From Siphonodentalium dalli (Eukaryota; Mollusca; Scaphopoda; Gadilida; Siphonodentaliidae): a stretch of DNA of 64,000 nt. Below are positions 2,995-63,670 of this stretch, piece after piece. Every line of letters starts with the position of its first letter. The stretch's first letter is position 1. Made by a program: the position numbers and the translations under genes. The stretch spans positions 4,891,512 to 4,955,511 of the forward strand of contig CP136064.1 of NCBI GenBank assembly GCA_032622095.1. Direction: 5' to 3'. The notes beneath the pieces are model-generated. The model saw only the letters and a program-made list of their open reading frames with translations, ran no database searches and was not told where the DNA came from.

Positions 2995-3175
2995 CACCCT
3001 TTTGAAAATGGGTTGTCCGTCCGTTCGTCCACTTTTGGTTTCCGGATGATAACTTTAGATTGAATCAAGTGAACTGAACCAAATTTGATGTTAGTCTAAC
3101 ACACCAAAATACAGATCAAGTTCGAATATGGGTTTCGTCCGCATGGTTTTGACTGAGTTATGCGGCTTACAAATG
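2995..3175 (+). repeat. copy of a GTCCGTCC / GGTTTCCGGATGATAACTT dispersed repeat
   Basis: It contains GGTTGTCCGTCCGTTCGTCC followed by GGTTTCCGGATGATAACTTT, the same order as in the fuller copy at 4325-4560. A divergent tandem version occurs near 57.7-58.2 kb. Confidence 0.65.
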
Positions 3176-4099: not shown

Positions 4100-4690
4100 T
4101 TATACGCCTGTTTTGAAAAAGCGGGACGTATTATGTTATTGGTCAGTCTGAACTGACTGGAATGAAATTTGGTATGTGATTATACCAGCCCAAATTACTT
4201 GTCAAGTTCGAATTGTGCAAATCTGCTATAGACATTGGATAGAAATTAAGTAAAAAAAATGGACCTGTGTTTCTGGTACCATGCATGAACAAATTAGGGG
4301 CAGGGTTGACTTTTCACTTGAATTCATTTTTATACGCCCTTTTGAAAAAAGGTCGTATTATGGAAATGGGTTGTCCGTCTGTCCGTCGTCCGTCCGTCCG
4401 TATTTGGTTTCCGGATGATAACTTTAGATTGAATCAAGTGAACTGAACCAAATTTGTCATGTTACTTTAACACACCAAAATACAGATCAAGTTTCAATAT
4501 GGGTTTTGTCTGCATGATTTTGACTGAGTTATGCCCCTTTTTCGACTCAGATTTTAACTGATATGCGGTTTTCCAGATGATAACTTTAGATTGAATCGAG
4601 TGAACAACCAAGTTTCAAACGATTGAATTAAACCTTGCCCCACTTTACTCCAGTAAGGGCATATTGTGCCCACACCCGTCGGCGTGCTCT
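4100..4690 (+). repeat. two adjacent copies of the ATACGCC...GTCCGTCC dispersed repeat
   Basis: A short copy begins at 4100 (TTTTTATACGCCTGTTTTGA) and a fuller one at 4327 (TTTTTATACGCCCTTTTGAA). The latter runs through the GTCCGTCC block and GGTTTCCGGATGATAACTTT to an end near 4690 (GGCGTGCTCTTGTTT). A second GATAACTTTAGATTGAATC near 4580 shows that the body is itself partly duplicated. Confidence 0.65.
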
Positions 4691-9722: not shown

Positions 9723-10190
9723 TATTTATCCATCGCACAAAACATGCATTTTGTGAGGTAAATCTGTCATTTTCCTCAGTTTTACATTCGTTACTTCGAT
9801 GACACCCTTACACTTATGAGGTCAAGAAACCTAATAAGCATTCATGACGTGCCAAAACCGGAGTGCAGCTTAGAGCAAAAGAGTTCGTTGGGTTTTTTAA
9901 TAGTTATTCTAAGCTGACCTTTAGTTAATGTTTTAGAGCGAAAACGTATATCCGATTACGAATTTTGTATATATCAATTGCGGTGAATTATGGACGATAA
10001 ATTGCATAATTATGCAATTACGTCATGAAAGTAGTACTAACCTAATAAAGATACGTTGACCTAATAAAGCTACTTTGACGTAATAAACGTAACGTTTATT
10101 AGGCAGGCTTTATGTAGGCAATAGAAGTAGTGAGCGGTGGATAAATACAAATCTGTTTAATATATATACGACATCATCGATGCTCTAATT
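9723..10190. other. AT-rich stretch with short CTAATAAAG repeats
   Basis: CCTAATAAAG-type motifs recur near 10040-10110 and the block ends in TTATTAGG. TTTATCCATCGCAC (about 9725) and GTGAGCGGTGGATAAAT (about 10130) could be termini of one element, but the match is weak. Confidence 0.4.
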
Positions 10191-10192
10191 AC

Positions 10193-10390
10193 TACATGGG
10201 TCTTTCCATAAACAACATTCCTTGCTCGGCACCGACTACGGCGGATGACATTACTCTCATTTCTCTTTCTAAAGGTGGTATCGACAGTTTAATGAACATA
10301 AATGTGATACAAAAATATAGTATTTTTCCTTCTCCTACACCAAGAACAATGAAGTTGAATTTAATGAGTCGAAGACTTATCATTCTATAG
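10193..10390 (+). pseudogene. short LINE reverse-transcriptase fragment (motif C region)
   Basis: A 64-codon ORF has the order SINNIPCSAPTTADDITLIS followed by a serine-lysine stretch and a leucine helix. This is how RT palm motif C (normally [FY]xDD) and its surroundings look in many invertebrate LINEs. The position before the two aspartates reads TA, not a tyrosine or phenylalanine. It is isolated and preserves only about 5% of an RT, so the call rests on motif shape. Confidence 0.5.
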
Positions 10391-10484
10391 CACGTAGGCT
10401 GTGGTAACTATGTCCAAATGTAATTCCATAAAAACCAGAGAGCACATATATTTATCAATGGTGCACGATAAATCCACCCAATCC

Positions 10485-11345
10485 ACCATGGTAAATCCAC
10501 CCATGTTCTTTTGGGCTAAAACTCGGGTGTCCATCTATCTACTAAGACATCCACCAACTATCAAGACTCACAGAAACCCGATTTTACCAGGATTAAAAAG
10601 ACAAAAACAAGACAAAAACCCTGGTGTGGATAAACATGGGTGTAATTACCCATATATCTACACCAAGTTGTACCCGGCTGTTTCCTACCTGGGTGTTTCC
10701 AACCAAGTTGTACCTTGGTGTGATTCACCCAAGTGTTTTCTACCCAGGTGTTCACTACCGAGGCGTATCTTGGTGTTTCCCACCCAGGTGTACCTTTGTG
10801 TTTTCTTACGTCGGTGTACCTGGGTTTTTCCTTGCCTGGTGATCCTTGGTGTTGTCTTACCCATGTGCATCTCCAAAGTGTTTCCACCCATATATACCTT
10901 GGTGTTTTTGACGGAGTTTCGCCGGATATTTCTACCAGTATATTTATACCCCGGGTGTTAAAGCAGGTACCGATCGATTAGTTTACCCTGGTGTATCCCA
11001 GTATTTTTACCCAGATGTATCCCCGATGCGCCACACCGATATACCCAGGTTTTAGAACACCAATGGTTTGCCACAGGATGCTGCACTGGGAGTACCACAG
11101 GGTATATTAATATAGTTGAGCCTGCTTAAGAACACCCGTGGTATACAATACGGTAGAAACATCCGGGACACACTTGGGTCGAAGACACCAAGGTACACCT
11201 CGGGTGGATACACCGAGATACACATCAATAAGAAAACCCCAAGTTTCACATAGGTAAGGAACACTAAAGTACAACCGGGTAGGAAACACAAAAATACATA
11301 TGGGTAGGAAACACAAACGAACACCTGGCTGAATAACACCACCGT
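10485..11345. repeat. ~25-bp minisatellite that switches orientation
   Basis: From about 10630 to 11050 imperfect units of the type GTGTTTCCCACCCAGGTGTA + CCTTG repeat at ~25 bp. From about 11110 to 11345 the complementary form (GGTACACCTCGGGTGGATAC, AACACAAAAATACATATGGG) repeats. The turn-around lies near 11050-11110. ORFs read through it on both strands are periodic artefacts. Confidence 0.85.
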
Positions 11346-12021
11346 ACTGGTGGTGACTATAAATTTCATAGTTGTCGATCCGTGCAATGGAGATTTTTGG
11401 ACAAAAAGACAAGTTGACTTTACATTTTTTTTTTTTAAATCATCCCGGGGCGGACACTATAGCGCGATTTGGACCAAAAAAACACTCTGACTGGCAATAT
11501 TCGATTTTGTTTACAAAATCCCCAGTAGTGGCTGGCACTTTATCGAGAATCGATCCCGCCGTAGTGCCAGCCATTAATAATTATATCTACATGTGCGCAT
11601 GGATGTGTTTGGATGTGGTCGGCTTTTCGACGGACAATAAACTGAGTCAAAATATTCATAGACGGTGTGTATATAACCCCAAGCGGTGCAGTATACATCA
11701 TAATTACCTTATTATGCTGCAGTAAAAGCCATGGAAGCAGGTAGAACTGCTACTGGTCGAATGTAGTTAATATTCATGTAGATCTTTAAAAAATTATAAA
11801 GCAATGCCGTAGAAGATACCAATTCCAATGGCTGGTGGTGAAATAAATCATAATTATATAACATGCACATTCCGAATGAGCATAAAACACTGCCTCTATA
11901 CGAAGTTGATACATGACAGTGATTATTAAAACATATTAAATTGGCTTATATATGCATGTTCGATATGGTGGATATCATATATGATTATTTGAATACACAT
12001 GTATTCGGTATTGAAAACAAA

Positions 12022-12058
12022 CTCGGGTGGATACACCGAGATACACATCAATAAGAAA
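12022..12058 (+). repeat. 37-bp perfect copy of minisatellite sequence inside the left arm
   Basis: It is identical to 11199-11235 (CTCGGGTGGATACACCGAGA...) and absent from the matching place in the right arm, so it is a templated insertion of neighbouring DNA. Confidence 0.85.
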
Positions 12059-12157
12059 TTATGTTATATAATTATATATAGTGTCAAACCGAATGGGGAA
12101 TCTTTAAAAATAGATTATCTCATGACATAGCAAGATTGATATACATGTAGTTTCATA

Positions 12158-12715
12158 TATCAGTACAGCGGCTGTAGTTCAGCAGATTATCGCGAACGCA
12201 GTTTAACTCAATTGTAACGAAGTTAGCAGAGTTTAGGTGGTGCAAATGACATGTAATCGATGGGCCATAACCAGGTACATGGATAGAACAAAATTTGGCC
12301 GACCTGCACCCCAGTTCAGCAGTTCAAAATCCCGTCCAGTAGTTCATATCGAGCAGTTCAGCAGATTCCCGAACGCAGTTTAACCAATTTTTAACGAGGA
12401 TAGTCGGGTATATGTTGTGCAAATGACTTTGGCCGACATACACCCCTGTTCAGCAGTTCAAAATCCCGTTCAGCACTTTATCGGGAAAAGTTCAGCAGAT
12501 TCTCCAAATCTAAGTTTAACTGATTTGTAACGAAGATATGCGGGTGAAGGTGGTTCAAATGACCTGAAATCGATGGGCCATAACCATATACGTTGATAGA
12601 AAACCATTTGGCCGACCTCCACCCCAGTTCGAGAAATCTGCTGATCAGAATTCTAGGTGATAATCTGCTGATCAGCTGCTGATTCAGCGTTTTAGGTACA
12701 TCCCCGTTTTTATAC
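12158..12715 (+). repeat. loop of the inverted repeat: three degenerate ~155-bp tandem units
   Basis: Units starting near 12176, 12355 and 12489 share GTTCAGCAGATT, ACGCAGTTTAAC, GTGCAAATGAC, ATCGATGGGCCATAACCA and TTTGGCCGACCT...ACCCC. The last unit ends in AATCTGCTGATCAG palindromes. Confidence 0.75.
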
Positions 12716-14005
12716 CCATGAAACTACATGTATATCAATCTTGTCAAGAGATAATTCATTTTTAAAGATTCCCAATTCGGTTTTGACACTATATATATAA
12801 CATAATAGTTTGTTTTCAATACCGAATACATGTGTATTCAAATAATCATATATGATATCCACCATATCGAACATACATATATAAGCCAATTTATAGGTTT
12901 AATCATCACTGTCAGGTATCACTTCGTATAGAGGCAGTTTTACCAATTATAAATTGTGTTAGCCGTCCAAACAAAAAATCAAAGATTATTACACAATACA
13001 TGTAGCTGTAATTAATAAAAGTTTTCTCAATAAAGAATGTTTTATGCTCATTCGGAATGTGCATGTTATATAATTATGATTTATTTCACCACCAGCCATT
13101 GGAATTGGTATCTTCTACGGCATTGCTTTATAATATTTTAAAGATCTACATGAATATTAACTACATTCGACCAGTAGCAGTTCTACCTGCTTCCATCGCT
13201 TTTACTGCAGCATAATAAGGTAATTATGATATATACTGCACCGCTGGGAGTAATATACACAACCGTCTATGAATACTTTGACTCAGTTTATGTCAGTTAT
13301 GGTCCGTCGAAAAGCCGACCACATCCAAACACAAATGACAAATAAGTGGGAATACAACAAATGCAGTCCATGCGCACATGTAGATATAATTAGTAACGGC
13401 TGGCACTACAGCGGGATCGATTATCGCTATAGTGCCAGCCACTACGGGGGATTTGTCAAAAAAACCCGGGATGATTTTTTTTCTAAAATGTAAAGTCAAC
13501 TTGTTTTTTTGTCAAAAAATCTCCATTGCACGGATCGACAACTATGAAATTTATAGTCACCACCAGTACAGTGGATTATTTTGGTCAAAAATCCCGCCAT
13601 AGTGTCCGTCCCTGGAGTTTTGGTCGATTCTTGTTATTGTGCCCACCAGTATGGGGGATTTCATGGTCCAAAAGCCCTATATTGCCAGGTAGAGGGATTT
13701 TTTGGGGGCCAAATCGCGCTATAGTGTCCGTCCCGGGGTGATTTTACTAAAAATGAAAAGTCGACTTTACATTTTGTCACAAAATCTCTATTGCACGGAT
13801 CGACAACTATGAAATTTACAGTTGTCGATCCGTGCAATGGAAATTTTGTGGTCCAAAAACCTAATATTGCCAGTCAGCGGGTTTTCTGGTAAAAAAATCG
13901 CGCCATAGTGTTCGTCCCGATGGATTTTTGGTCAAAAATCCCGTTATAGTGGCCGACCCGGGGATTTTTTCTAAAAATATTAAAGTCAACTTGTCTTTTG
14001 TCAAT

Positions 14006-14310
14006 GCAAGATAATGAGAAGATAGTTATGAAGAAGCGAAAAGTTCAGCGTTTATTTATTCTGAAGACGAAGAAATAACAGAAGAGCGGAGACGAAAACG
14101 CAAAAAGAGAACACAGGGGTGAAAATAAAAAGAGAAAGGTCAGTGGCAATAGATTTCGATTCATCGGAATATTTTGAGGTGGTGAGTAGTGTAGAGAAAT
14201 TTTCGAGAGAATTTAGAACAGCTGCGAGAAATTTGAAGTGAAATTTCAAAAACTTCCCAAACCCATTTAAAAAATGTGTCCAAGATTTTTTATAGTTAGC
14301 TGAAAATTTA
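14006..14310 (+). pseudogene. array gene-fragment copy 1
   Basis: A degenerate copy of the fragment described at 15684. It breaks off at the poly-C tract and carries a stop within the acidic segment (GAAATAACAGAAGAG). Confidence 0.6.
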
Positions 14311-14324
14311 AGTGAAGGTGTGTC

Positions 14325-14325
<1 letters not shown>

Positions 14326-14364
<39 letters not shown>
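14326..14364. repeat. 39-bp homopolymer C tract at an inversion junction
   Basis: Thirty-nine consecutive C lie exactly between a forward fragment copy (ending about 14320) and an inverted one (from 14365). The minus strand is G39 and could form quadruplexes. The minus ORF across it reads as polyglycine and is not a gene. Confidence 0.9.
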
Positions 14365-14366
<2 letters not shown>

Positions 14367-14485
14367 GTGTTAACTTTTTGCGTTTTCGTTCTCGTTCTTC
14401 TGGTATTCCTTCATCTTCAGAATAAATAATCGGCTGAATTTTTCGCTTCTTCTTTTCATTATCTTGCATTGACAAATGACAAGTT
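14365..14485 (-). pseudogene. array gene-fragment copy 2 (inverted, 5' part only)
   Basis: The complement reads CAATGCAAGATAATGAAAAG and continues through the SEDEG-type acidic and arginine-lysine-rich segment, ending at the C tract. Confidence 0.6.
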
Positions 14486-14835
14486 GACTTTACATTTTTT
14501 TCAAAAAAAATCCCCTGGACGGCCACAAAAGCGGGATTTTTGACCCAAAATCCATCGGGACGGACACCATAGCTTGATCTTTGACCAAAAACGTCTCTGA
14601 CTGGCAATATTGTGCTTTTTGACCACAAAGCTATGAAATTTATAGTTGTCGATCCGTGAAATGGAGATTTTGTGGTCCAAAAGCCCAATATTGCCAGTCA
14701 GAGGGGTTTTTGGTAAACAAAATCGCGCTATAGTGTCCGTCACGATAGATTTTTTGTCAAAAATCTCGCTATAGTGGCCGCCCCGGGGATATTTTCGAAA
14801 ACAAAATGTAATGTCAACTTGACTTTTGTCAATGC

Positions 14836-15130
14836 AAGATAATGAGAAGATAGTTATGAAGAAGCGAAAAGATCAGCCGATTATTTATTCTGAAGATTAA
14901 GAAATACCAGAAGAGCGGGGACGAAAACGCAAAATGAGAATGCGGGGTGAAGAAAAAAAAGAGAAAGGTCAGTGCCAATAGATTTCGATGCATCGGAATA
15001 TTTGATAGTTTGGCTGAAAATTTAAAAAACAAAAATGTGAAGTTGGGTCTTCAACACGAGTTCGGATTACAATAAATCATCCTGGTTTAGATATGGGAAT
15101 TTTCCTCCCATTCAAGAAAGATTAAGAAAT
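14836..15130 (+). pseudogene. array gene-fragment copy 3 (internally deleted)
   Basis: It holds the 5' part and the 3' part (GAAGTTGGGTCTTCAACACG). About 120 bp between GCATCGGAATATTT and GATAGTTTGGCTGAAAAT, present in other copies, are missing. Confidence 0.6.
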
Positions 15131-15683
15131 CGATCGCGCTATAGTGACAAAAAAAATCACCCCGGAACAAACACTATAGCGCGATTTTTGACCAAAAACC
15201 ACTCCAAATGGCAATATTGGAATATTTGACCAAAAATCCTCCGTTCTGGCTGGCACTATAGCGCGATCGATTCGCGTTATATTACCCACCAGTACGGGGG
15301 ATTTTTTGGTCCAAAAGCCACAATACTACCAGAGGGCTTTTTGATCCAAATAACGCTATAGTGTCCGTCCCGGGGTGATTTTTCCTATAAAATGTTAAGT
15401 CGACTTTACATTTTGTCAAAAAATCTACTCTGTACGGATCGACAGCTATGAAATTTATAGTTGTCGATCCGTGCAATGGAGATTTTGTGGTCCAAAAGCC
15501 CAATATTGCCAGTCAGAGGGGTTTTTGGTCAATCGCGCTATAGTGTCCGTCCCGATGGATTTTTTTGTCAAAAATCCCGCTATAGTGTCCGTCCCGATGG
15601 ATTTTTTGTCAAAAATCCCGCTATAGTGGCCGTCCCGGGGATTTTTTCTAAAACAATATGTAAAGTCAACTTGTCTTTTGACA

Positions 15684-16104
15684 ATGCAAGATAGTGAGAA
15701 GATAGTTATGAAGGAGCGAAAAGTTCAGCCGATTATTTATTCTGAAGATGAAGAAACACCAGAAGAGCGGGAACGAAAACGCAAAAAAGAGAACACGGGG
15801 GAAAAGAAAAAGGTCAGTGCCAATAGATTTCGATGAATCGGAATATTTTGAGGTGGTGAGTAGCGTAGAGAAAGTTTCTAGAAAATTTAGATCAGCTGCT
15901 AGGAAATTTGAAGTGAAATTTGAAAATTCCACACCCATTTAACAAATGTGTCCAAGATTTTTGATAGTTTGGCTGAAAATAAAAAAAAACATTATTGTGA
16001 AGTTGGGTCTACAATACGAGTTCGGATTAGAATAAATCATGCTTGTTTAGATATGGGGATTTTTCTCCCATTCAAGAAAGATTATGAAATCGATCGCGCT
16101 ACAG
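15684..16104 (+). pseudogene. array gene-fragment copy 4 (best preserved): anonymous N-terminal-type protein fragment
   Basis: The fragment encodes, in order, an acidic patch (YSEDEE-like), a basic nuclear-localisation-like run (about 15748-15815), the segment SVPIDFDESEYFEVVSSVEK, a basic-aromatic helix (RKFRSAARKFEVKF) and a C-terminal segment with LDMGIFLPFKKDYEID. One frame covers 15748-15942. After a stop the same protein continues at 15948-16110. Copies elsewhere in the array share the protein order, so the ancestor was coding. I do not recognise the family. The LD-x-x-I-x-LPF motif recalls an uncharacterised domain seen in large mobile elements of aquatic invertebrates, but that is memory only. 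The fragment is cut at both ends by hairpin modules. Confidence 0.6.
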
Positions 16105-16595
16105 TGACAAAAAAAATCATCCCCGGGAAGAACACTATACAGAGATTTTTTACCAGAAACCACTCTTACTGGAAATATTAGGATTTTTGACCGAAAAATG
16201 CCCCGTACTGGCTGGCATTATATTCACGCTATAGTGCCCACCAATACGGGGGGTTTTGAGGTCCAAAAGCCCCAATATTTCCAGACAGAGGGATTTTTGG
16301 TCCAAATCGCGTTATAGTGTCCGTCCATGTGTGATTTTTACTGAAAATATAAAGTGGACTCTACATTTTGTCAAAAATCTCCATTGCACGGATCGACAGC
16401 TATGAAATTTATAGTTGTCGATCCATGCAACGGATATTTTGTGGTCCAAAAGACTAATATTGCCAGTCAGAGGGGTTTTTGGTCAAAAAAGGCGCCATAG
16501 TGTCCGTCCCGATGGATTTTTGGTAAAACATAACGCTATAGTGGCCGCCCCGGGGATTTTTTCTACAAAATGTAAAGCCAGCTTGTCTTTCGTCA

Positions 16596-17012
16596 ATGCA
16601 AGATAATGAGAAGATAGTTATGAAGGAGCGAAAAGTCAGCCGACTATTTATTCTGAAGATGAAGAAATACCAGTAGAGCTGGGACGAAAACACAAAAAGA
16701 GAACACGGGGTGAAAAGAACAAGAAAAAGGTCAGTACCAATAGATTTCGATGCATTGGAATATTTTGAGGTGGTGAGTAGAGTGGAGAAATTTTCTAACA
16801 AATTTAGAACAGCTGCGAGGAAATTTGAAGTGAAATTTGAAAAAAATTCCACACCCATTTAAAAAATGTGTCCAAGATTTTTGGCCGTTTGGCTGAAAAT
16901 TTCAAAACAAATGTGAAGTTGGGTCTTCAACACGAGTTCGGATTACAATAAATCATCCTGGTTTAGATATGGGGATTTTTATCCCATTCAAGAAAGATTA
17001 TGAAATCCATCG
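16596..17012 (+). pseudogene. array gene-fragment copy 5
   Basis: Nearly full length with the same order of acidic, basic and LPF segments. Small indels break the frame around the basic run. Confidence 0.58.
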
Positions 17013-17517
17013 CGCTACAGTGACAAAAAAAGCACCCCGGGACGGACACGACAGCGCGATTTTTTACCAAAAACCACTCTGAATGGCAATATAGGGGATT
17101 TTTGACAAAAAATCCCCCGTACTGGCTGGCACTATAACGCGATCAATTCGCGTTATAGTAAACACCAGTACGGGGGCATTTAGTGGTCCGAAAGCCCCAA
17201 TATTACCAGAGGGCTTTTTGGTCCTAATAACGATATAGTGTCCTTCCCGGAGTGATTTTTAATAAAAATGTAAAGTCGACTTTACATTTGTCAAATAATC
17301 TCCACTGCTCGGATCGACAACTATGAAATTTATAGTTGTTGATCCGTGCAATGGAGATTTTGTGGTCTAAAAGCCCAATATTGCCAGTCAGAGGTGTTTT
17401 TGGTTCAAAAAATCGCACAATAGTGTCCGTACCGATGGATATTTGGTCAAAAATCCCGCTATGGAGGCCGTCCCGGGATTTTTTTAAAAACAATGTAAAG
17501 TCAACTTGTCTTTGGTC

Positions 17518-17640
17518 ATTGCATGATAATGAGAAGATAGTTATGAAGAAGCGAACAGATCAGCCGATTATTTATTCTGAAGATGAAGAACTACCAGAAG
17601 AGCGGGGTCGAAAACGCAAAAAGAGAATACGGGGTGAAGG
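17518..17640 (+). pseudogene. array gene-fragment copy 6 (5' part)
   Basis: The acidic and arginine-lysine-rich parts only. It is followed directly by an inverted piece of the 3' part. Confidence 0.55.
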
Positions 17641-17654
17641 CCCAAAATTAACAT

Positions 17655-17805
17655 TTTTGTTTTTATTTTTCAGCTAAACTATCAAAAATCCTGGTCACAT
17701 TTTTTAAATGGGTGTGGAAATTATTGAAATTTTCCTCGCAGCTGATCTAAATTTTCTAGAATATTTCTGTACACTACTCACCACCTCAAAATATTTCGAT
17801 GCATC
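17655..17805 (-). pseudogene. array gene-fragment copy 7 (inverted middle part)
   Basis: The complement reads from GCATCGAAATATTTTGAGGT through AATTTAGATCAGCTGCGAGG to the segment after it. It abuts the forward copy at 17795 head to head. Confidence 0.55.
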
Positions 17806-18062
17806 GGAATATTTTAAGGTGGTGAGTAGTGTAAAGAAATTTTCTAGAAAATTTAGATCAGCTGCTAGGAAATTTGAAGTAAAATTTGAAAAACATTCCA
17901 CACCCATTTAAAATATGTGTCCAAGATTTTTGGCCGTTTGGCTGAAAATTTCAAACAAAAATGTGAAGTTGGGTCTTCAACACGAGTTCGGATTACAATA
18001 AATCATCCTGGTTTAGATATGGGGATTTTTATCCCATTCAAGAAACATTATGAAATCCATCG
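17795..18062 (+). pseudogene. array gene-fragment copy 8
   Basis: It starts at GATGCATCGG, the centre of the local palindrome, and continues through the SAARKFEVKF and LPF segments. Confidence 0.58.
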
Positions 18063-18668
18063 CGCTACAGTGACAAAAAAGGCACCCCGGGACGGACACA
18101 ACAGCGCGATTTTTTACCAAAAACCACTCTGAATGTCAATATTGGGGATTTTTTACCAAAAATCCCCCGTACTGGCTGGCACTATAGCGCGATCAATTCG
18201 CGTTATAGTAAACACCAGTACGGGGGCATTTAGTGGTCCAAAAGCCCCAATATTACCAGAGGGCTTTTTGGTCCTAATAACGATATAGTGTCCTTCCCGG
18301 AGTGATTTTTACTAAAAATGTAAAAGTCGACTTTACATTTGTCAAATAATCTCCACTGCTCGGATCGACAACTATGAAATTTATAGTTGTCGATCCGTGC
18401 AATGGAGATTTTGTGGTCTAAGAGCCCAATATTGCCAGTCGGAGGTGTTTTTGGTTCAAAAAATCGCACAATAGTGTCCGTACCGATGGATATTTGGTCA
18501 AAAATCCCGCTATGGAGGCCGTCCTGGGATTTTTTTTTTAAAACAATGTAAAGTCAACTTGTCTTTGGTCATTGCATGATAATGAGAAGATAGTTATGAA
18601 GAAGCGAAAAGATCAGCCGATTATTTATTCTGAAGATGAAGAACTACCAGAAGAGCGGGGTCAGCTGA

Positions 18669-19729
18669 CTTTTTGAAGCTCTCCAGTCGAAAGGGAAAAT
18701 CGCTAAAACATAAAATGCAGAGAAATATTGGCGCAAATTACGGTCCCAAATGATTTAAAGCCTTTCTACAAATTACGTGAAAGCTGCTACCGATGAAAAT
18801 CGTCTAAGATTTAGTGAAAATGTTACTCTGAAAAATTCTAGTGCCACGTAGAGGTTGCCGCCATTTTGAAAATCTTCGAGAGAGAACCTGGTGAGATCAA
18901 ACCATATTTCCCTTGTTATACTTCATATCAATAGATACGAACTCAGAAGTGCTTATCAAGCCAATAATATAACTAGCAACTTATTGTTTATTTTGGTCAC
19001 TGACTGTTCATTTTCCTGTGTTGACCAACTCTTCGAGTGTATTGCTCACAATGGAAACTGGTTCAGGCACCCTGTATACCCTCAGGTTTCAATTGTCACT
19101 CACAACATACAAACTAGCGCTCAAAAGAATGACGAATCAAATGTATTGCATCTTCATGATGCATAGATAATAGGACACATGCTCCGAAACACGATGAAAA
19201 TGCCAGGAATATCTTAAAGAGTGATAGGGATTATTCAACATCCTCTTTGCTAGATGGCAATAAGCGTCCACCGATATAGCAATCACCCATGGGCATCTCT
19301 AGCTACCAATATCATGATTCCTCTCATATATATCAGTGTGCATTTTCTGGAATCCAATGCTAGCCCAGCCGGCTTAAACTCGTTGGAACGGGGCATAATT
19401 AGTTCATTTACAAATCATGTTCTTTAAGCTTTAATAATCATGATTTGCATGAAATTCCTAAAAGCTATACCAGATGATCTCTCTACCCAAACCCCAGGCA
19501 GATTTATCTCCCATCGCTCCGCTGAGATAACACTGCCATAAGGACATTTGGTAAGGATTTCTTACGTGTTCTCAGTTCTTATGTTTTAGGATTAAAATTG
19601 TCTATGTCTGGCTCAGTTCATAATGTTCTTATTAATACCGAAAGAATGACCACTATTGCAAACTTTTGTTACTGTCATCGTATAATTTCTTATTCCTGTG
19701 TTTTATATAACGTTCTTCAAGTTTGTTCG
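18669..19729. other. no confident feature
   Basis: An ORF at 18891-19166 (91 codons) matches nothing recognised. A CCGCCATTTTGAAAATC motif (18859-18876) is the complement of a YY1-like AAAATGGCGGC, but its ATG frame closes after 8 codons. Very decayed LINE sequence on the minus strand may extend left from 19730. Confidence 0.4.
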
Positions 19730-20090
19730 CTATTGTAGCACAATACTTGGTGATGTCAAAGTTGACTGATTTATCCACACATGTTCTAATCCAATTTTTC
19801 TTAAAAACAATTCAACACTCTGACTAAAGCCACCGTCTATTTGCATGCTTTCAAAATAGGCGTTTTTAACTAATGAGGACTCTGGTGCAGAAATGATGTG
19901 GTGACAAAATCCAATGCTATTCTTTAGTCCTGCTATATATACGGGAAAAAGACACAATTCCACTGGACAAGCCATATTACCAGATGACTTGTTCACACCT
20001 AAAACAGATTTAGTACATTTTAACTGTATTTTATCCATAGGGAATGTAAACATTCTGATCTCAATCTCAATTTGAGTCACTAATATAATA
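19730..20090 (-). pseudogene. LINE ORF2 C-terminal fragment
   Basis: A 116-codon minus-strand ORF contains DKIQLKCTKSVLGVNKSSGN, then PVELCLFPVYIAGLKNSI and near the end GLEHVWINQ. The order K-x-x-K-x-x-LGV-x-KSS...E-L-x-x-FP-x-Y-I is the region after the RT thumb in a large group of invertebrate non-LTR elements. The RT motifs lie upstream (higher coordinates) and are missing. It is 5'-truncated, and no poly-A was found. Confidence 0.65.
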
Positions 20091-20470: not shown

Positions 20471-20480
20471 CTTTTAGCAG

Positions 20481-20763
20481 TCTATGGACGCTAGCTATGT
20501 TCATGAAGTATATGGACGCTAGCTATGTTCATGAAGTCTATGGACGCTAGCTATGTTCATGAAGTCTATGGACGCTAGCTATGTTCATGACGTCTATGGA
20601 CGCTAGCTATGTTCATGAAAGCCTATGGACGCTAGCTATGTTTATGAAGTCTATGGACGCTAGCTATGTTCATGAAGTCTATGGACGCTAGCTATGTTCA
20701 TGAAGTCTATGGACGCTAGCTATGTTCATGAAGTATATGGACGCTAGCTATGGTCATGAAGAC
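20481..20763 (+). repeat. 28-bp tandem repeat, ten copies
   Basis: The unit CTATGGACGCTAGCTATGTT + CATGAAGT is repeated ten times with few changes (for example GTATATGG variants, one GAAAGCC junction, one TTTATG). There are no unique spacers, so it is not CRISPR-like. Confidence 0.95.
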
Positions 20764-24250: not shown

Positions 24251-27200
24251 TTTTTTTTTTCTTTTTTTTTTATTGATAAAGAAGAATAATAACAAAAGAA
24301 AGAGACAAAATACATTCACTCATTCATGCTCTCTGTCCAAAACATGGAAGAGTTTCACTCTTCCATGCCCTGGCCTACTTTCTTACCTGTGACATGCAAT
24401 TAGAAAATATTTAAAGCCACACTATGTGTTAGGACAATTTTAACAGTCATCGTTCAACTTAAAAGCAAGACCAATAATCGATACTAGGTACTACCTTGAT
24501 ATATTTTTTGCCTGAAAAGGACTTTCTTTAGCAACAACAATGATAATAAAAAACAATAGATTATTTGTTTGTCTTCAGATTAACTTTAAATTTCCCTTAT
24601 TAACCGGCTAAAGTGGTCGATGGTTTGCAATATTTAAGGTTTGCAAATTCAATGTTCCAACACTATGTGCAGCTTTAATTGATTTAAGTTATGAATTTAA
24701 CATAAACAGTTTAATTAGTAAATTTAACCATATTGAGACCGTATTGTAAATATTGTGAATATTGCCTGGTTCGATAGCAAAGGGGAAAAATACACAACGC
24801 TCGCTTGAATTGCGTTTGAGACTGTGATTGTAAAATGTTGTGATGTGGTTAAGCATACCATGTATATATTGACGTTCTTGTGGACTGTATTACTGGACCA
24901 ATAAGAATGAGAATGATCGCTCGGGTACCGGGTAATTGATTTAAGCTGTGTGTTGTTCAGGGTCACTGTTAAGGTAGGGTATACTTTGAGTCTGTAAAAA
25001 ACAGGGTTTTTAATATAATATTATATTATTTTATTTTTAAGGCATTTCGCAGTGCCAGCCACTGATTATCGAAGTCGTGATTCATGTTACATTTTGCGTT
25101 GTATCTCTCGCATTCATACCTAAATTGAAGATCGCAAAGGAACGGGCGAAGCGACAGCTGTGTCGGTGTGAATTTGGTCCTATATATATATTGTTTCAAC
25201 ACTAGTAGGAAAAGGTTAATTTTTGAATATCTGTATTCATGATCGATACCTATAATGATATTCTTTTTTGTTAGATCAATTGGAAATTGGTTGTTTCTTG
25301 TCCATGTTTTAATTTCTAGTATAAAGGTTTGGACGTGGGGACAATCCCAGAAAATATGAGATATGGTTTCCTGTACATTTTGACAGCGATTGCAAAAATC
25401 GTCGAGTCTAAGGTTAGCCATCTTCAGAAATTTATTGGTACTAATAATTCGTGTGTTTATTCTGAATTGGAGCCACTGTAATTTCGTATCCGTTGTCGTT
25501 TTAAAGGGCATGCTCAAATGTTCTTCCCAAATTTCTATCTTCTCGCCTATTTCGTATTCCCATTTTTGGCATGCATTCGGCATATTTTTCCCATTTGTTA
25601 GAGTTTTGTAAAATAATTGCCCGCCTTTTACGTCACGGAGTATCGGAGCGAGATTGTTGGGTAGGAATGGACATGGCATATGGATTAAGCGTTGATTAAG
25701 AGAACTTGCCAATGAGAAAATCTGACGCTTTATGTTGTTGATTGTTATGAAATCGACGCGGATGTTGAAAGTTGCATATAATGTGAATGGGGTATGGAAT
25801 TTATTATCTGATTGGAATAGATCATTTATATAATATATTCCCGCATCTTTCGACGACTTCAAGTTGATCGACGAACCTCCGATTTTTATGTTCGGATTAT
25901 TCCAGATAGTTGAGGTCATAATATTATCATTTGCATTATTTAGTCACATAAATTTACACCATGCGCGGAAGACGTCTCTCCAGAATGGATTTGCGAACTT
26001 GTCTGTTTGCTTTACAATATAATTTGCGTGGTATGTGAGAAGGAGTGGGTCGTTTAAGAGAGGGTTGGTATTGCATAGTGAAGCCCACTTCGATTGTTTG
26101 CAAATCAAACGTCGTATCCAGGTAATTTTCATGGCGGCATCAAAGTTTTCAACATTAATCATCTTCAAACCTCCGTACATATGGTCAGCACATAATTGTT
26201 TTCTTTTTATTCTATCGCGTTTGGAATTCCAAATGAAATTATATAGACAGGTATTTAGGGCTTTCAAAAAGGCTGTATCCGGACTTGGGAGAGCTATAAA
26301 TAGGTGTGTCAATTTAGGTAAGATTAGTGATTTGATAACTGTTATTCTACCTAAAGGGGTCAGGAGTCTGTGTTTCCAAATTTTTGTGGTCCTATCAATA
26401 TCTTCGAGTTTATAACTGTAGTTTATATTCATGTTTGTTAAATTAGTGTCGAAATGAATGCCTAGAAAATTAAAGGTGTTTACGGTAGACAGGTTTAATT
26501 CCGAAAGCACTTGTCGTATTTTATTTTGTGACTCAATCCCTATCTACGCTGCTTGACATTTTTCAGGATTTATGCGCAGACCCGATACCCGAGCAAATTC
26601 GTCCAGTGTTAAGTACGATTCGCGTAGACTATTTTCAGAACCATCAAGTATGAGCATCGTGTCGTCCGCATATTGTGTTATTTTGTACTCTGAACCGCCG
26701 AGGAAAATCCCTTTAATTGTATTGTTTTGTCGTATCATTAGCCCTAAAACTTCGGCACAGAGGAGGAAGATATACGGGGATATTGGGTCACCCTGGCGGC
26801 AGCCTCTCCCTAACATGAAGCTCTGAGAAATATGACCATTAATCAGAATAGATGAACTGGCATTCTCGTACAAAATTGATATCCATTTTTTTACTGCATC
26901 TCCAAAATTAAAAAGGTCAAGACATTTTCTTATAAATGACCAGGAAACAGTGTCAAATGCTTTTTCAAAATCGATAAGGAGTAGTAGGCCAGATTTATTT
27001 TCTTGCTTTGTCCTGTGAATTATGTCATATATAAGTCGGGTGTTGTCACCTATATACCTACCAGCTAGAAACCCAGTTTGATCGGAGTTGATTATAGATG
27101 GGAGCACACGTTTTATTCTGTCAGCTATGCATGACGAGGCTAGTTTGTAGGATGTATTCAAGAGGGTTATGGGACGCCAGTTTTTTATCATCTGCCTATT

Positions 27201-28127
27201 TTTATCCTTTTTTGGTATCAACGTTATAATGCCTTGTTTTTGTGTGATTGATAGCTCCCCCATTGAAAACGATTCATTGAGCGACTCTGTTAAGAAGGGG
27301 CCAAGGTCAGACCAAAAAAATTTATAAAATTCATAAGTGTATCCGGATGGCCTGGGCTTTTATTATTTTTGGTGGTCTTAAGCGCATCTGTTAATTCTTG
27401 CAAGGTTAAAGGTCCTTCAATACGCGAGGCCTGCATGTTGCTTAGTTTAGAAACGGTTCCATCGTTAAGAAGGGATTTTAAATCGCGATCGTCCATTGAC
27501 CTATATGAGTATAAATTAAGATAAAAATTTCGGACTTCTTTCATGATATCGGTTTGTTTTGTGATTGTACTATCATTCGCCACTGTCAGGCTGGTCAGGG
27601 CTTTGGAAATGTAATTACGTTTTTCTAAATTTAGAAAATATTTTGTTGGTTTTTCGCCTTCCTCTATCCATTTTGCACGAGATCTAACCATGGTTCCGCG
27701 GATTGTTTCTCTTCGCATTGCTTCCATTTCGACTTCTACTTTTTCTAAGTCTTCCATTATTTTTTGCTTTTCTTCAGAGCTATATGATGGATGCTCAAGA
27801 TCAGAAATAATTTTTGCCTTTTTTAATGTTAGATTTTTCTCAATTTTTATTCGCTCACGTTTTCGATTTGCAGAAAATCGTATAGTAGCGCCTCTGATAT
27901 CAAGCAACACTGCGTCGAGAAATAGTCGTTTTCCAATGGAGCAATTTTTAATGCTTTTTTCCTCATTTGAGGAGTAAGAATATCTTATTTTGTTTTCAGC
28001 TATGATTCCTTTTACTAAGTCGACATATTCTCTACAGTATAACAGAGAATTATTAAATTTCCAAAAACCTGGACCAGTCTTGATGTCACTGACGTTTAAT
28101 GGGAGTGAAATAATAGAATGATCTGTT
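24251..28127 (-). mobile_element. L1/Tx1-like LINE, 5'-truncated, 14-bp TSD
   Basis: A 3.9-kb insertion lies between two copies of TTGCTAACAAAGCT (24237-24250 and 28128-28141). On the minus strand it runs from the last part of the endonuclease domain through RT and C-terminus (25026-28127), a ~750-bp 3' UTR (24276-25025), then AATAAA and a poly-A tract (24251-24273 read as T on the plus strand). Poly-A, a TSD of this size and 5' truncation are the signature of target-primed reverse transcription. Block B has the uninterrupted site. Confidence 0.92.
25026..28127 (-). pseudogene. L1/Tx1-like ORF2 remnant: endonuclease end, RT, C-terminal zinc knuckle
   Basis: From the 5' side: the catalytic SDH-like TDHSIISL of the APE endonuclease and GPGFWKFNNSLL; EEGEKPTKYFLNLEKRN before the RT; YKLASSCIADRIKRVLP; RT motif A LIDFEKAFDTVSW; motif B GCRQGDPISPYIF; intact motif C QYADDTMLIL; thumb WKHRLLTPLGRITVIKSLIL; a C-terminal CNRCQNVQETISHIFWDC knuckle; stop at 25026. 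It is disabled by one frameshift near 27350 and in-frame stops at 26541-26543 and 25941-25943. About 1000 residues remain. The endonuclease N-terminal part and ORF1 are absent through 5' truncation. The RT catalytic residues are intact, so decay is moderate. Confidence 0.9.
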
Positions 28128-28182
28128 TTGCTAACAAAGCTACTCGGTAATCTCTGAAGCACACTGCCTTCGGTAATAAATC

Positions 28183-33818: not shown

Positions 33819-35209
33819 TTATTGTGCATTTTCTTTCACGGCAAATTTGAACAAGAACCAGTCTTTTTCGAACTCTTCCAATTTAAATTCACGGCGTGCA
33901 TTATATTTTTCACATTTATATCGAAAGCGTAAATCTCCTTGGAATGACGAAATTGTTAATTTTTCTGGTGTGAATTTTGTTCTATAGATATATTGTTTTA
34001 CTAAGAGCCAGAATAAATTAGTGGTATAATTGTCATTTACACAGCGGGACCCAATTATCATTATTCGTTTAGTCGCTTGCAATTTGACGTTATTTAGGTT
34101 ACCCCATGAATGTATGTCTGTCAGAAAAGTTTGAACGTGTTCACATTCCCAAAATATATGTGATATGCTTTCCTTCTTGTCTTTGCAACGCACGCATGTA
34201 TCATCTTGTCGAATTTTGGCTATTTTCAGGAAGCTATTAGTTGATATAATTCAAGAGTTAATTCGATACTGAAGCCATTGAAGCTTTGTGTCAGGCGTCG
34301 TGGAAAATGGTAGTTTATTGTATATATTCCAGTCAATTTCTTCTTAGCCTATTTCTATTTGCCATTTTGCATGGGAAGTGGGTACATGGCAATCGTGGTT
34401 TAATATGTCATAGAAATCGCGTCCTCCGCGAGGATTTCTGAGTAGGGTCACAAAATTATCTGGGAGGGTGGGCATCGGGCTTCGGACAGTGGGTTTTGAG
34501 ATTTTGTTTGAGTAAAAGATAAGCTGTCGTCGGTTACTATTTAAGATAAGGAAGTTTGTACGTATTTTGTAAGTTGAGTATATCGTTTCAGTCGTATGGA
34601 AATTGCCGCTTTCTTGTAACAGATCGTGTACAAAATATATTCCCTCCTTGCGCCATGCAGCAAAATTGATAGGGCTTCCATTCATTTTTATATTGGCGTT
34701 GTTCCAGAGAGTGCATGTAGATATGTCTACATTTCTAATATTTTTTTCTAGGAAATTTGCCCATGCTATAAGTACGTCGCGCCAAAAGTGATTTTGAACC
34801 TTTTTCGCTTTACTGTAAAAATATGAATAATGATAGGTGAGGAAAAAGGGTCTTTAAGAATAGGGAGTTCTGTTAACGGGGTCCATTTAGAGCTTTTGTT
34901 CACTAAACGCCTGATCCATGTTATTTTCATGGAAGAGATGAAGTTTTTAATATCTACCATCTTGAGGCCACCTTGTTTATAGTCTTGGCATAACAGTTTT
35001 CTCTTGACTCGGTCACGCTTGCTGCCCCACACAAAGTTAAAAAACAATGATTCTAGTCTATGTACAAATTGTGGTTCTGGGTTGGGGAGCGATATGAATA
35101 GGTGAGTAAGTTTGGGGAGTATGAGAGATTTAATCACCGTTATTCTACCTAGCGGGGTAAGTAATCTGTGCTTCCAAATTTCAATGGATCTTGTTATGTC
35201 GTCGAATTT
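33819..35209 (-). pseudogene. L1/Tx1-like ORF2 C-terminal remnant, copy 2
   Basis: It begins at IEIWKHRLLTPLGRITVIKS, which is the same thumb motif as the copy at 25026-28127, continues through WIRRLVNKSSKW, PMPTLPDNFVTLLRNPRGG, and the zinc knuckle CMRCKDKKESISHIFWEC, to a stop at 33819. Stops interrupt it near 34340 and 34252, and a frame change lies between 34690 and 34770. RT motifs A to C are absent through truncation. Protein identity to the first copy looks about 50-60%, so these are different subfamilies and not one recent burst. Confidence 0.85.
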
Positions 35210-35219
35210 TGGAGTACAA

Positions 35220-35999
35220 ATTATTGGTAAAACCACGCAGTACAGCCGGTACAAAAGTTGGTTCAGAGAAAATGTTACAAAATCATTTCAGCAGTGTCAC
35301 AGTTCTGTCCCCTGTACCGTTATGTTCAATGTTTCAGCGCTGTGCGCATGCATTCTTTGTATGGAGTAGAAGTAACACATCGGTACATCATCATCTGTTC
35401 CCAGAGTACTGTATATGTATATGTGATGAATATAAAACCTTCATATAGCAACACAATTAACATATATCATGATATTCTAATTTCTATAGTTGAATACATT
35501 AAAATACACAAGTATGGTTCCCCTCCATTCACAATAATCCACATAGAATATGATATTCCTTCCACAAGTGTCACATTTTTCATGCACGTACCAGGACAGA
35601 GATATGGTTTGTCATCCACCTTGAAATTAAAGTAATATCGGCATTTTGTAGCTTTGTCGGCTATCATTTAAGTTGATAATAAATGCTCTGTATTGCTAAC
35701 TAGTAGTGCCTCTTTAAGTCATCTGAACCTATTGGTTAAACCCATGATTCCCCACCCGCCCGGTGTCAAATTACATCAATGTTGAAATGTGCCGACATGT
35801 CTTTTGAGCTGATAATAAAAGCTCTTCATTGATCATCTAATCTATGTAAAAATCAACCACAAGCGCGCTAGCGCCTTGGTGCTTATAACTTAGGCTCAGG
35901 TAAATGATGACGTCATATAGCTCTTTCTATATTTTCTATAGCAATGGGGGTCAATTTCTGGTTGCGTGTAGGTTTTTTTGGGGGCAAATTAACACGTGA
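35220..35999. other. no supported feature
   Basis: Overlapping short plus-strand ORFs at 35112-35635 are unrecognised and mostly cross the L1 boundary. Confidence 0.45.
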
Positions 36000-56200: not shown

Positions 56201-57689
56201 CATATTATACATAATTTTTGGACCTTGAAGTCACCTTGTTTGGGTAGGGTCGGGAGGAAAAAAAATAAAAATAAAATTGGTTGAGTCAAATTTTTTTTTC
56301 CGGACGTTCGTTAAGGCGTCACCCGTAGAACAGTTTTCTCATATGTTATTGGATACTATTACTGCAAAGATTGGGCTAAATATGTGTTTATATTTATTAC
56401 TAGTAAACACTTGAGTCATATTCTAATTCATCCATGTGTTGGGTAGTTGGTGGACCCAACTAATCAAACAGAGCTATACGCTCTCGATTAGTTGGGAAGT
56501 TGGAGCTTCAAGCACTACCTCCATGGGATTTTCCATTATTATGAATTTTTTTCCCACTTATACTAGTAACATGCAAATACAAACATTGCATATCAATTAT
56601 GTTGAAGACTAATCTGTTCTGAGTCAGTATCAACAAGCTACCCGACGAAAAAATCAAAATGTGAAATTTGTAGCTGTTTTAAAAATACGTGGTAGACGGC
56701 TTGCCGAAGCGCTACTTCTGGAAAAATTAGACACTACACCGCCTCATTTCAATCATCAAATTCACATGTAACTAGATGGTTTTATCTGCTACCATTAAGT
56801 AATAAACGTCAAGCGATAATGACAGATTACGAAGTCATTGTGCACAATACCTGACTCTCGAAATATAATCCAAACTTTGAGAGAAATCCTAGACCGTTAA
56901 TTTGTCAACATTTAAAACTTGAACTGTAGTAAATTGACGGAACGGAATAGCGGAACGAACTTACAACTGCATATATATTGTTGTCTCCAAACTAACTCAT
57001 TGTGGTATCCATTCTTGTTATATGTGCTTTTAAATCTATTTGAATCGAGAGAAAAAAAACTCGTAACAAACAAGAACGCGAGAACATGTTATAGTAGGAA
57101 TCCAATTATGTTCGTTCCGATTCCTGTTTCACTGTTTTGACGGATTTTTGCAAATACAAAATGGCTGGAAGTTCGAGGCGGTAGAAATATGCTCTCGATT
57201 TATGCGAAGAATGACACGACTAACATCTGAAACATGCATTGATACCACACTAGAAATGTACTAGAAGCTCTTATCTACAAGTATGTGGCAGTTTTGGCTG
57301 TTAAATAATATTTTTTAGTGTGTGTTATCGCTTGTGAAAAGTCGAGTAAATGTCCATACCATGATTGGAGACGGAGTACTGATTTCAGTGATATACCGTC
57401 CTGACTTTTATAGAGCTATGCTCTGATAATAAAAGTCAATGTGTTGGGATGTTCCGTGTTATTAAAATATATTAAAATTCAATGAACAGCTTGTTTATAT
57501 TGAACTTTAAATATATACATGTAAATAGGAATACATAGATGGACATAGAGGGATATATTTTGTGTTTTGTACACATGCCCATGTTGTGTGTTTTATTATA
57601 TTTTGAAACTAACGATAATTTTGACTTTTATCGAACAAGTGAAACTAAGCTGGTAGAAAAATGGTTACCGGTTATTAGATCAAAAGCAA
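56201..57689. other. no supported gene; two small hairpins
   Basis: Hairpins lie near 56442-56498 (CCCAACTAATC...GATTAGTTGGG with an AGAGC...GCTCT core) and 57390-57434 (TGACTTTTATAGAGC...GCTCTGATAATAAAAGTCA). ORFs at 56919-57140 and 57539-57817 are unrecognised; the latter runs into the next repeat. Confidence 0.45.
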
Positions 57690-58190
57690 ATTTCATAGGT
57701 GAGTTTATCAGACCAAAATACAGGTCAAGTTCGAATATGGGTTTGCTCCGCCCATTTTTGCGAGAGTTATGGCCCTTTTTCGACTTAGAATCTTGTAATT
57801 TTCTGGTTTCCAGATGATAACTTCAGTTTGTGTGATCATATCGTAAAAAAATTTGGTATGTGAGTTTATCAGACCAAAATACAGGTCAAGTTCGAATATG
57901 GGTTTGCTCCGCCTATTTTTGCAAGAGTTATGGCCGTTTTTCGATTTAGAATCTTGTTATTTTCTGGTTTCCGGATGATAACTTCAGTTTGTGTTATCGT
58001 ATCTGAACTAAATTTGGTATGTCAGTTTATTGGCCCTATATACAGGTCAAGTTCGAATATGGGTTTGCTCCGCCCATTTTTGCGAGAGTTATGGCCATTT
58101 TCGACTTAGAATCCTGTCAATTTCTGGTTTCCGAATGACAACTTTAGTTTGTGTGATCATATCTTAATCAAATTTAGTATGGTAGTTTAT
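57690..58190 (+). repeat. ~165-bp tandem repeat, three units
   Basis: Units start near 57697, 57857 and 58020 and contain CAGGTCAAGTTCGAATATGG + GTTTGCTCCGCC, AGAGTTATGGCC and CTGGTTTCC(G/A)GATGATAACTTCAG. This is the tandem form of the GTCCGTCC/GGTTTCCGGATGATAACTT family seen at 3-4.7 kb. Confidence 0.82.
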
Positions 58191-58934
58191 CCACCATTTC
58201 AGGGGACACTGGTTGGATTGTTCTGAAATTTAGTATCAGATTTAGGGTCCTTGTTATTTTTTTCAGAAAAGCTGATGCCCCCAATGAAGCCACTTTTTCG
58301 GGGGACACTGTGGCCGGACGGCCTTTTATTTAAAGATATAATTATTCCCCTTGCATTGAAAATACATTTTTAGTTTGAATTCTGCTGCATTCTGGGAGCC
58401 ATAACGGGGGAATTTTTTTATGATTTCAGCTGTTTTCTATTTCTCTATGGGCATCTTATGAGACACAGACGTTTCAAATAGTGATGAATTATAGTATTTT
58501 AATCATATTTTATGGCATAGATTGTTATTCTAATTAATACATGGATTTATTGACAAAAATTGTTTCTGTCCATCTCCTATAAGTTCAATACACAGAAACT
58601 ATTTTCCGTTTCCATCATTTCTGAAATATTCTGGCATGCCCAGAGTCTCTTTAATTTTTTGTCACAGAGATTTGACAGTGGTGTTATGAGTTATATTGAA
58701 GCCATTTGGAGGTTTTCTGAGAGGTACCGGTATAAAATATAATATTTTTTTTTACTTTTTCACGAAATACCAATGATTATATGAGTGTATAGAGCGATTC
58801 TGCCAGATGTGTCACTTAATCAGCACTAGTTAGAATATCTTTTAAAAATAAACTTTCCAAGGGCGGAAGCCGAAGGTTAAAATTTCCTTGATGTTCCTTA
58901 TTAAACATATCAGAACTTGCTAAAAGCGCTCAGG
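58191..58934. other. no supported gene
   Basis: GGGGGACACTG(T/G)-type phrases near 58200 and 58290 suggest another short repeat. A 60-codon ORF at 58560-58742 is unrecognised. Confidence 0.45.
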
Positions 58935-63540: not shown

Positions 63541-63670
63541 ATTTTTTTATTTTTCACTATTATTATACTTCCATATTTTAATATGGAAGTATATTGTTAT
63601 TCAATTTTTTATTTTTCACTATTATTATACTTCCATGTTTTACATGGAAGTATATTGTTTTTGTGATTTT
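63501..63670. repeat. tandem of a small palindrome, three copies
   Basis: ACTTCCATATTTTAATATGG + AAGT, a near-perfect palindrome, recurs at about 63507, 63567 and 63630 with ~60-bp spacing and T-rich spacers. Single copies end the earlier 697-bp units (61560, 62257). Confidence 0.88.

What the first reader, a model, noticed from the sequence alone, without database searches (positions are those of the whole stretch)
13568..18668. Satellite array that repeatedly carries one protein-coding fragment between hairpins
At least six copies, three of them substantial, encode the same ordered protein segments (acidic patch, nuclear-localisation-like basic run, SVPIDFD..EYFEVVSSVEK, SAARKFEVKF, LDMGIFLPFKKDYEID). 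Copies differ by indels and inversions but keep the protein wording, so the source was coding. They are interleaved with hairpins of CGCGCTATAGTG type. This could be a gene-capturing foldback element that became tandem, or the debris of a large DNA element.
Basis: partly seen in the sequence, partly recalled or inferred. Interest (0 to 1): 0.75.

Follow-up and report, generated by a model that had tools for sequence, protein, structure and literature searches.

The report
Hairpin-rich satellite from a foldback element
A short run of repeated, hairpin-filled DNA lies next to a foldback mobile element in what looks like an animal genome; its repeated protein-like stretch shows no sign of having been kept as a protein since the copies arose, so it looks like ordinary mobile-element debris.

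Summary
The repeats are real. From about 13.6 to 18.66 kb lie six forward units (A-F), spaced 915-1050 bp where this can be measured, plus two partial inverted copies. A foldback (arms 11339-12156, 12718-13574) abuts the array and shares its arm ends with the units. Best reading: satellite-like amplification of a non-autonomous inverted-repeat DNA element. The coding claim is not supported: of 58 distinct substitutions in three claimed segments 12 are silent, 12.4 expected; 10 of 15 indels are not multiples of three; two joints between segments are in frame in 0 of 4 and 0 of 5 copies. A LINE control shows constraint by the same test. Stop-free length is ordinary in four of five copies, but copy C is more open than chance on two of three measures. 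A dead, already frame-shifted parent gene is not excluded: no animal proteome or transposon library could be searched. Interest is low.

The parts
11339..13574 (.). Foldback structure; arms 11339-12156 and 12718-13574, middle with tandem repeats of about 140 bp at 12176-12630; the outer part of the arms (left arm 11356-11576) matches the array unit's left half
   Evidence: self-BLAST; sequence
13624..14321 (+). Unit A, 3' end cut off before a run of 39 C
14326..14364 (.). Run of 39 C at the joint of unit A and the inverted copy
14363..14629 (-). Partial inverted unit copy
14629..15152 (+). Unit B, with a 117-bp internal deletion in the purine-rich stretch
15152..15383 (.). Long imperfect palindrome P1 at the B/C junction
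   Evidence: self-complementary 75% over 240 columns
15267..16112 (+). Unit C; purine-rich stretch 15683-16105; 41-bp subrepeats 15531-15647
16112..16339 (.). Palindrome P1 at the C/D junction
   Evidence: 72% over 231 columns
16222..17027 (+). Unit D; purine-rich stretch 16595-17021; 41-bp subrepeats 16472-16561
17027..17260 (.). Palindrome P1 at the D/E junction
   Evidence: 71% over 241 columns
17143..18077 (+). Unit E, split between 17640 and 17787 by an inverted segment
17642..17786 (-). Inverted partial copy inside unit E; local palindrome axis 17801.5
18077..18310 (.). Palindrome P1 at the E/F junction
   Evidence: 72% over 241 columns
18193..18657 (+). Unit F, truncated inside the purine-rich stretch; end of array
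15417..15489 (.). Hairpin P2 of unit C (also 13778-13850, 16374-16443, 17297-17364, 18348-18415)
   Evidence: DNA fold -21.9 kcal/mol, z -9.7

Best explanation
A short, old, satellite-like array made by tandem amplification of one hairpin-rich unit of a non-autonomous DNA element with long inverted repeats; a foldback form of the same family sits at its left edge. The palindromic junction P1 is where the right inverted repeat of one unit meets the left inverted repeat of the next. Later events were one more recent copying of a block of about 870 bp (D2-E1 to E2-F), small indels, and inverted insertions. The protein-like stretch is the unit's purine-rich interior and has evolved without visible protein constraint since amplification. 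Shown: the array, the sequence shared with the foldback arms, the hairpins, the flat substitution pattern. Inferred: that the family transposed, and that unequal crossing-over or a similar process amplified it.
For: Six forward units; P1 recurs at the four junctions B/C, C/D, D/E and E/F, while between A and B an inverted copy lies instead. The foldback's left arm matches, inverted, the left parts of units A, C, D, E and F at 74-78%. 41-bp subrepeats called in units A, C, D and in the inverted copy. 6 of 6 folded hairpin stretches, two of them in the foldback, beat all 200 shuffles. 12 silent of 58 distinct changes vs 12.4 expected, while the LINE control gave 238 silent vs 142.3 expected, largest of 300 shuffles 171. 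Frame joints: ATG to RKR in frame 3 of 5 copies; RKR to SVPIDFD 0 of 4; SVPIDFD to VSKI 0 of 5; VSKI to DMG 2 of 3. 10 of 15 indel runs are not multiples of three, the share expected by chance.
Against: No target-site duplication seen by eye and no transposase found, so that it is a transposon family is inferred from anatomy. The genome is not held, so dispersed copies could not be sought. The purine-rich half diverges somewhat less between units than the palindromic parts, which plain neutral decay does not explain. Copy C is more open than shuffles on two of three measures (P 0.015 and 0.017).
Confidence: 0.72

Rival explanations
1. The stretch is a dead fragment of a real gene (a host gene captured between inverted repeats, or the start of the element's own gene left by internal deletion), already frame-shifted when the unit was amplified.
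For: Copy C is more open than most shuffles (sum of two longest runs P 0.015; frame switches needed P 0.017; longest run P 0.058) and E2 is borderline on switches (0.063). In a codon score trained on the window's LINE ORFs the claimed frame ranks first of six in 2 of 4 segments and second in 2 of 4, though the frames were picked for openness. The consensus stretch begins with an ATG.
Against: Flat codon positions (this speaks only to the time after amplification); 0 of 4 and 0 of 5 in-frame joints; no Pfam match near its cut-off, no PDB match, no relative in viral or prokaryote contigs. In the control 23 of 23 held-out LINE pieces rank first.
Confidence: 0.22
2. An array of small working protein genes.
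For: Stop-free stretches of 75 codons or more exist in some copies.
Against: The basic run and SVPIDFD are in frame in 0 of 4 copies; 3 of 58 distinct changes make stops, as expected by chance (2.9); copies are truncated, deleted or split by inversions.
Confidence: 0.02
3. Assembly artefact joining unrelated repeats.
For: A run of 39 C at 14326-14364 sits at a joint and could be a sequencing or assembly scar.
Against: Outside the recently copied block the parts of the units differ by about 9-19% on average, so they are not one copy assembled several times, and the P1 junction recurs four times.
Confidence: 0.04

Closest known systems
Tetris foldback transposon and its TIR-220 satellite, Drosophila virilis (PMC4079207; abstract, section 10 and part 1 of section 16 read)
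   Same: Non-autonomous foldback with long inverted repeats and tandem subrepeats, and satellite-like arrays made from pieces of the element
   Different: There the amplified unit is a 220-bp repeat inside the arm; here it is a unit of 915-1050 bp with inverted-repeat halves and an interior. Tetris has 8-10 bp target duplications; none was seen here. No sequence comparison was made
DAIBAM, a MITE related to Tetris (same paper, same sections)
   Same: A shorter relative sharing terminal sequence with a foldback
   Different: DAIBAM was found at chromosome inversion breakpoints; here the shorter form lies in tandem
Satellite-like repeats carried by Helentron elements in the Pacific oyster (PMC7492417; search listing and start of abstract only)
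   Same: Short satellite-like arrays linked to non-autonomous mobile elements
   Different: Helitron ends were not tested here; this unit has long inverted repeats

Membership tests
Foldback element | Long terminal inverted repeats around a middle | tested here: met
   Arms 11339-12156 / 12718-13574
Foldback element | Tandem subrepeats in or near the inverted repeats | tested here: inconclusive
   41-bp repeats called in units A, C, D and in the inverted copy, not in the foldback's own arms
Foldback element | Target-site duplication | tested here: inconclusive
   None seen by eye at 11338/13575 or at 18657; no formal test; the right arm runs into the array
Foldback element | Transposase partner of a named superfamily | not testable with these tools
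   No genome held; no Pfam match at cut-off in the 11 scanned (10, 1) of the 30 stop-to-stop ORFs of 75 aa or more in 10000-20000
Satellite DNA | Head-to-tail units | tested here: met
   Units B-F with P1 at each junction; unit A in the same direction but parted from B by an inverted copy
Satellite DNA | High copy number in the genome | not testable with these tools
Gene-capturing (Pack-type) element | Internal stretch derived from a host gene found elsewhere | not testable with these tools
   No eukaryotic proteome; the searches found no relative
Gene-capturing (Pack-type) element | Sign of coding origin in the stretch | tested here: inconclusive
   Codon positions flat after amplification; copy C open beyond most shuffles on two of three measures
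Helitron/Helentron | Characteristic ends and insertion site | not tested
   Element ends not defined well enough

The most novel reading that the evidence does not exclude
The purine-rich stretch is the remnant of the first gene of a large, undescribed DNA element whose internally deleted derivatives kept both ends and became a tandem array. The last segment (..GIFLPFKKDYEID..) recalls, from memory only, a motif in proteins of large self-replicating elements of the Polinton kind; no call tested this.
Probability: 0.1. Interest if true: 0.5.

Novelty: new member of a known kind. Interest (0 to 1): 0.22.

Why it matters
It is a probable further case of a foldback-type element feeding a satellite-like array, here with a whole inverted-repeat unit rather than an arm subrepeat as the amplified piece. 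It also shows how a purine-rich repeat can look like conserved protein (acidic and basic runs) without evidence of coding. If a parent gene were found it would show a gene fragment carried by a foldback family of this genome.

Tried and rejected
Own-genome search: no genome held. Protein searches of the segments apart: Pfam (three listings, all far under cut-off: E 1.4, E 0.04 and 0.16), PHROGs (one listing, E 0.48), PDB sequences (none), phage records (one listing, E 6), viral contigs and prokaryote contigs: no relative. Exact DNA words of the hairpin and of the 41-bp repeat in viral contigs: none. Structure prediction of the uninterrupted 65-residue piece of copy C, single sequence: mean pLDDT 52, not used further. 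Rfam on 10200-19000: 28 matches up to E 1 (best 6.8e-14, at the inverted pair in unit E), all of them microRNA-precursor families and all below their gathering scores; rejected as the general response to hairpins. Snap-back at short palindromes as the origin of the inverted copies: axis 17801.5 lies on CGATGCATCG with 93% pairing over 61 positions, but over 358 columns the pairing is 81% and no clean axis was found near 14655 (best 0.57 of 30 positions), so it is not claimed. Paper searches: 113 papers, 20 listed; 15, all listed; 8, all listed; 25, 10 listed; no listed title or abstract start describes this repeat.

Full report
What is there. Self-comparison of the window shows repeated units from 13624 to 18662 in the forward direction: A 13624-14321, B 14629-15152, C 15267-16112, D 16222-17027, E 17143-18077, F 18193-18657. 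Two inverted partial copies lie at 14363-14629 and 17642-17786. Measured from palindrome to palindrome the spacing is 960, 915 and 1050 bp for C, D and E. Long unit pairs are 82-89% alike in BLAST; the block D2-E1 (16738-17609) and the block E2-F (17787-18662) are 96% alike, a more recent copying. Unit E is split by the second inverted piece, and unit F stops inside the purine-rich stretch at about 18657.

Anatomy of a unit. Left to right: half of a long imperfect palindrome P1 (whole palindromes 15152-15383, 16112-16339, 17027-17260, 18077-18310, self-complementary at 71-75%), a second hairpin P2 of about 70 bp, 41-bp subrepeats (called by Tandem Repeats Finder at 13893-13969 in A, 15531-15647 in C, 16472-16561 in D and 14506-14591 in the inverted copy), a purine-rich stretch of about 430 bp, then the other half of P1. 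In single-stranded DNA folding the six hairpin stretches tested (two P1 centres, two P2, two in the foldback) are each more stable than all 200 shuffles (z -4.6 to -10.4). The motif CGCTATAGTG with up to one mismatch occurs 27 times within 11330-18660 and once in the rest of the window.

Neighbourhood. A foldback structure at 11339-13574 has arms 11339-12156 and 12718-13574. The outer part of its left arm (11356-11576) matches, in inverted orientation, the left parts of units A, C, D, E and F at 74-78%. The right arm runs directly into the array. So foldback and array share terminal sequence and belong to one family. No target duplication was seen by eye at the outer borders, which leaves the superfamily unassigned.

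Is the stretch coding? In the consensus MQDNEK..RTRG and CEVGSSTRV..YEID lie in one frame, SVPIDFD..KFEKLSTPI in a second, and the linking FHTHLKN.. in the third. In the individual copies ATG to RKR is in frame in 3 of 5, RKR to SVPIDFD in 0 of 4, SVPIDFD to VSKI in 0 of 5 (one of these an inverted copy), VSKI to DMG in 2 of 3. Because every copy that spans them is out of frame at two joints, the shared ancestor probably was too (inference).

Substitutions. In three segments (N, S, C; the linking segment F was not included), from nine aligned pieces including the inverted copies, 58 distinct substitutions against the majority consensus were 43 replacement, 12 silent and 3 stop, with 42.7, 12.4 and 2.9 expected if changes fall at random on the same bases; positions 1, 2, 3 carry 26, 17, 15 (expected 20.7, 19.2, 18.1). 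Of 15 indel runs in the whole alignment 10 are not multiples of three, the chance share. The same test on 485 aligned LINE codon pairs from the window gives 238 silent against 142.3 expected (largest of 300 shuffles 171) and 313 of 642 changes at position 3, so the test can see constraint. That control is larger and more diverged, one of its three aligned blocks is weak (31% identity) and overlaps another in the query. The test speaks only to the time after amplification.

Openness. Against 2000 dinucleotide shuffles per copy the longest stop-free run is not unusual in A, B, D and E2 (P 0.17, 0.52, 0.30, 0.18) and borderline in C (0.058). C is unusual in the sum of its two longest runs (0.015) and in needing few frame switches (0.017); E2 is borderline on the latter (0.063). 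With five copies and three measures this is weak evidence for coding, but it is evidence. The reverse strand has a longer longest run in four of the five copies (89, 73, 85, 88 against 58, 45, 76, 61 in A-D; 45 against 60 in E2). In a codon score trained on the LINE ORFs the claimed frame ranks first of six for N and C and second for S and F, against 23 of 23 first ranks for held-out LINE pieces; since the claimed frames were chosen for being open, this leans towards coding by construction.

A result that does not fit neatly. Summed over unit pairs, the three parts of the purine-rich stretch differ by 0.092, 0.102 and 0.098, the left hairpin half by 0.143 and the P1 arms by 0.189; leaving out CpG sites changes little. 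Those sums leave out the recent E-F pair for the left half and P1 but kept the equally recent D-E pair in the second and third parts; without it they become 0.106 (89 of 837) and 0.114 (68 of 595), from the counts. So the gap is smaller than the raw sums suggest but remains; the pairs are not independent. It may mean faster change or conversion within palindromes.

Searches for relatives. None was found in Pfam, PHROGs, PDB, phage records, viral contigs or prokaryote contigs. Beyond what Pfam and the PDB contain, these collections hold no animal proteomes or transposon libraries, and the window's genome is not held, so a missing parent proves little. That the window is from an animal is inferred from its LINE (reverse transcriptase and zf-RVT matches in 2 of 5 ORFs scanned) and repeat style, not tested.

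Verdict. A satellite-like array formed from a hairpin-rich, non-autonomous inverted-repeat element with a foldback relative at its edge; the general route from foldback to satellite has a precedent in Tetris (PMC4079207; abstract, section 10 and part 1 of section 16 read). The coding reading is not supported by the tests that could be run, though a dead gene fragment remains possible.

Noticed in passing
10710-11347: A separate weak palindrome (64% over 646 columns) holding 25-bp tandem repeats, directly left of the foldback; a 37-bp piece of it (11199-11235) recurs exactly at 12022-12058 inside the foldback.
   Followed up: partly
14326-14364: Run of 39 C at a rearrangement joint; may be a sequencing or assembly scar.
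   Followed up: no
13624-18310: The purine-rich stretch diverges less between units than the palindromic parts, not explained by CpG sites.
   Followed up: partly
25026-28162 and 33819-35254: Two related LINE remnants; ORFs of the first match RVT_1 (E 6.9e-39) and zf-RVT (E 1.4e-06) in Pfam.
   Followed up: partly
60848-63566: Near-identical direct duplications (98.4-99.6% over 562-780 bp).
   Followed up: no
20479-20761: 28-bp tandem repeat, 10.1 copies, 95% matches.
   Followed up: no
57688-58191: 161-bp tandem repeat, 3.1 copies, with related pieces at 3033-3162 and 4405-4593.
   Followed up: no
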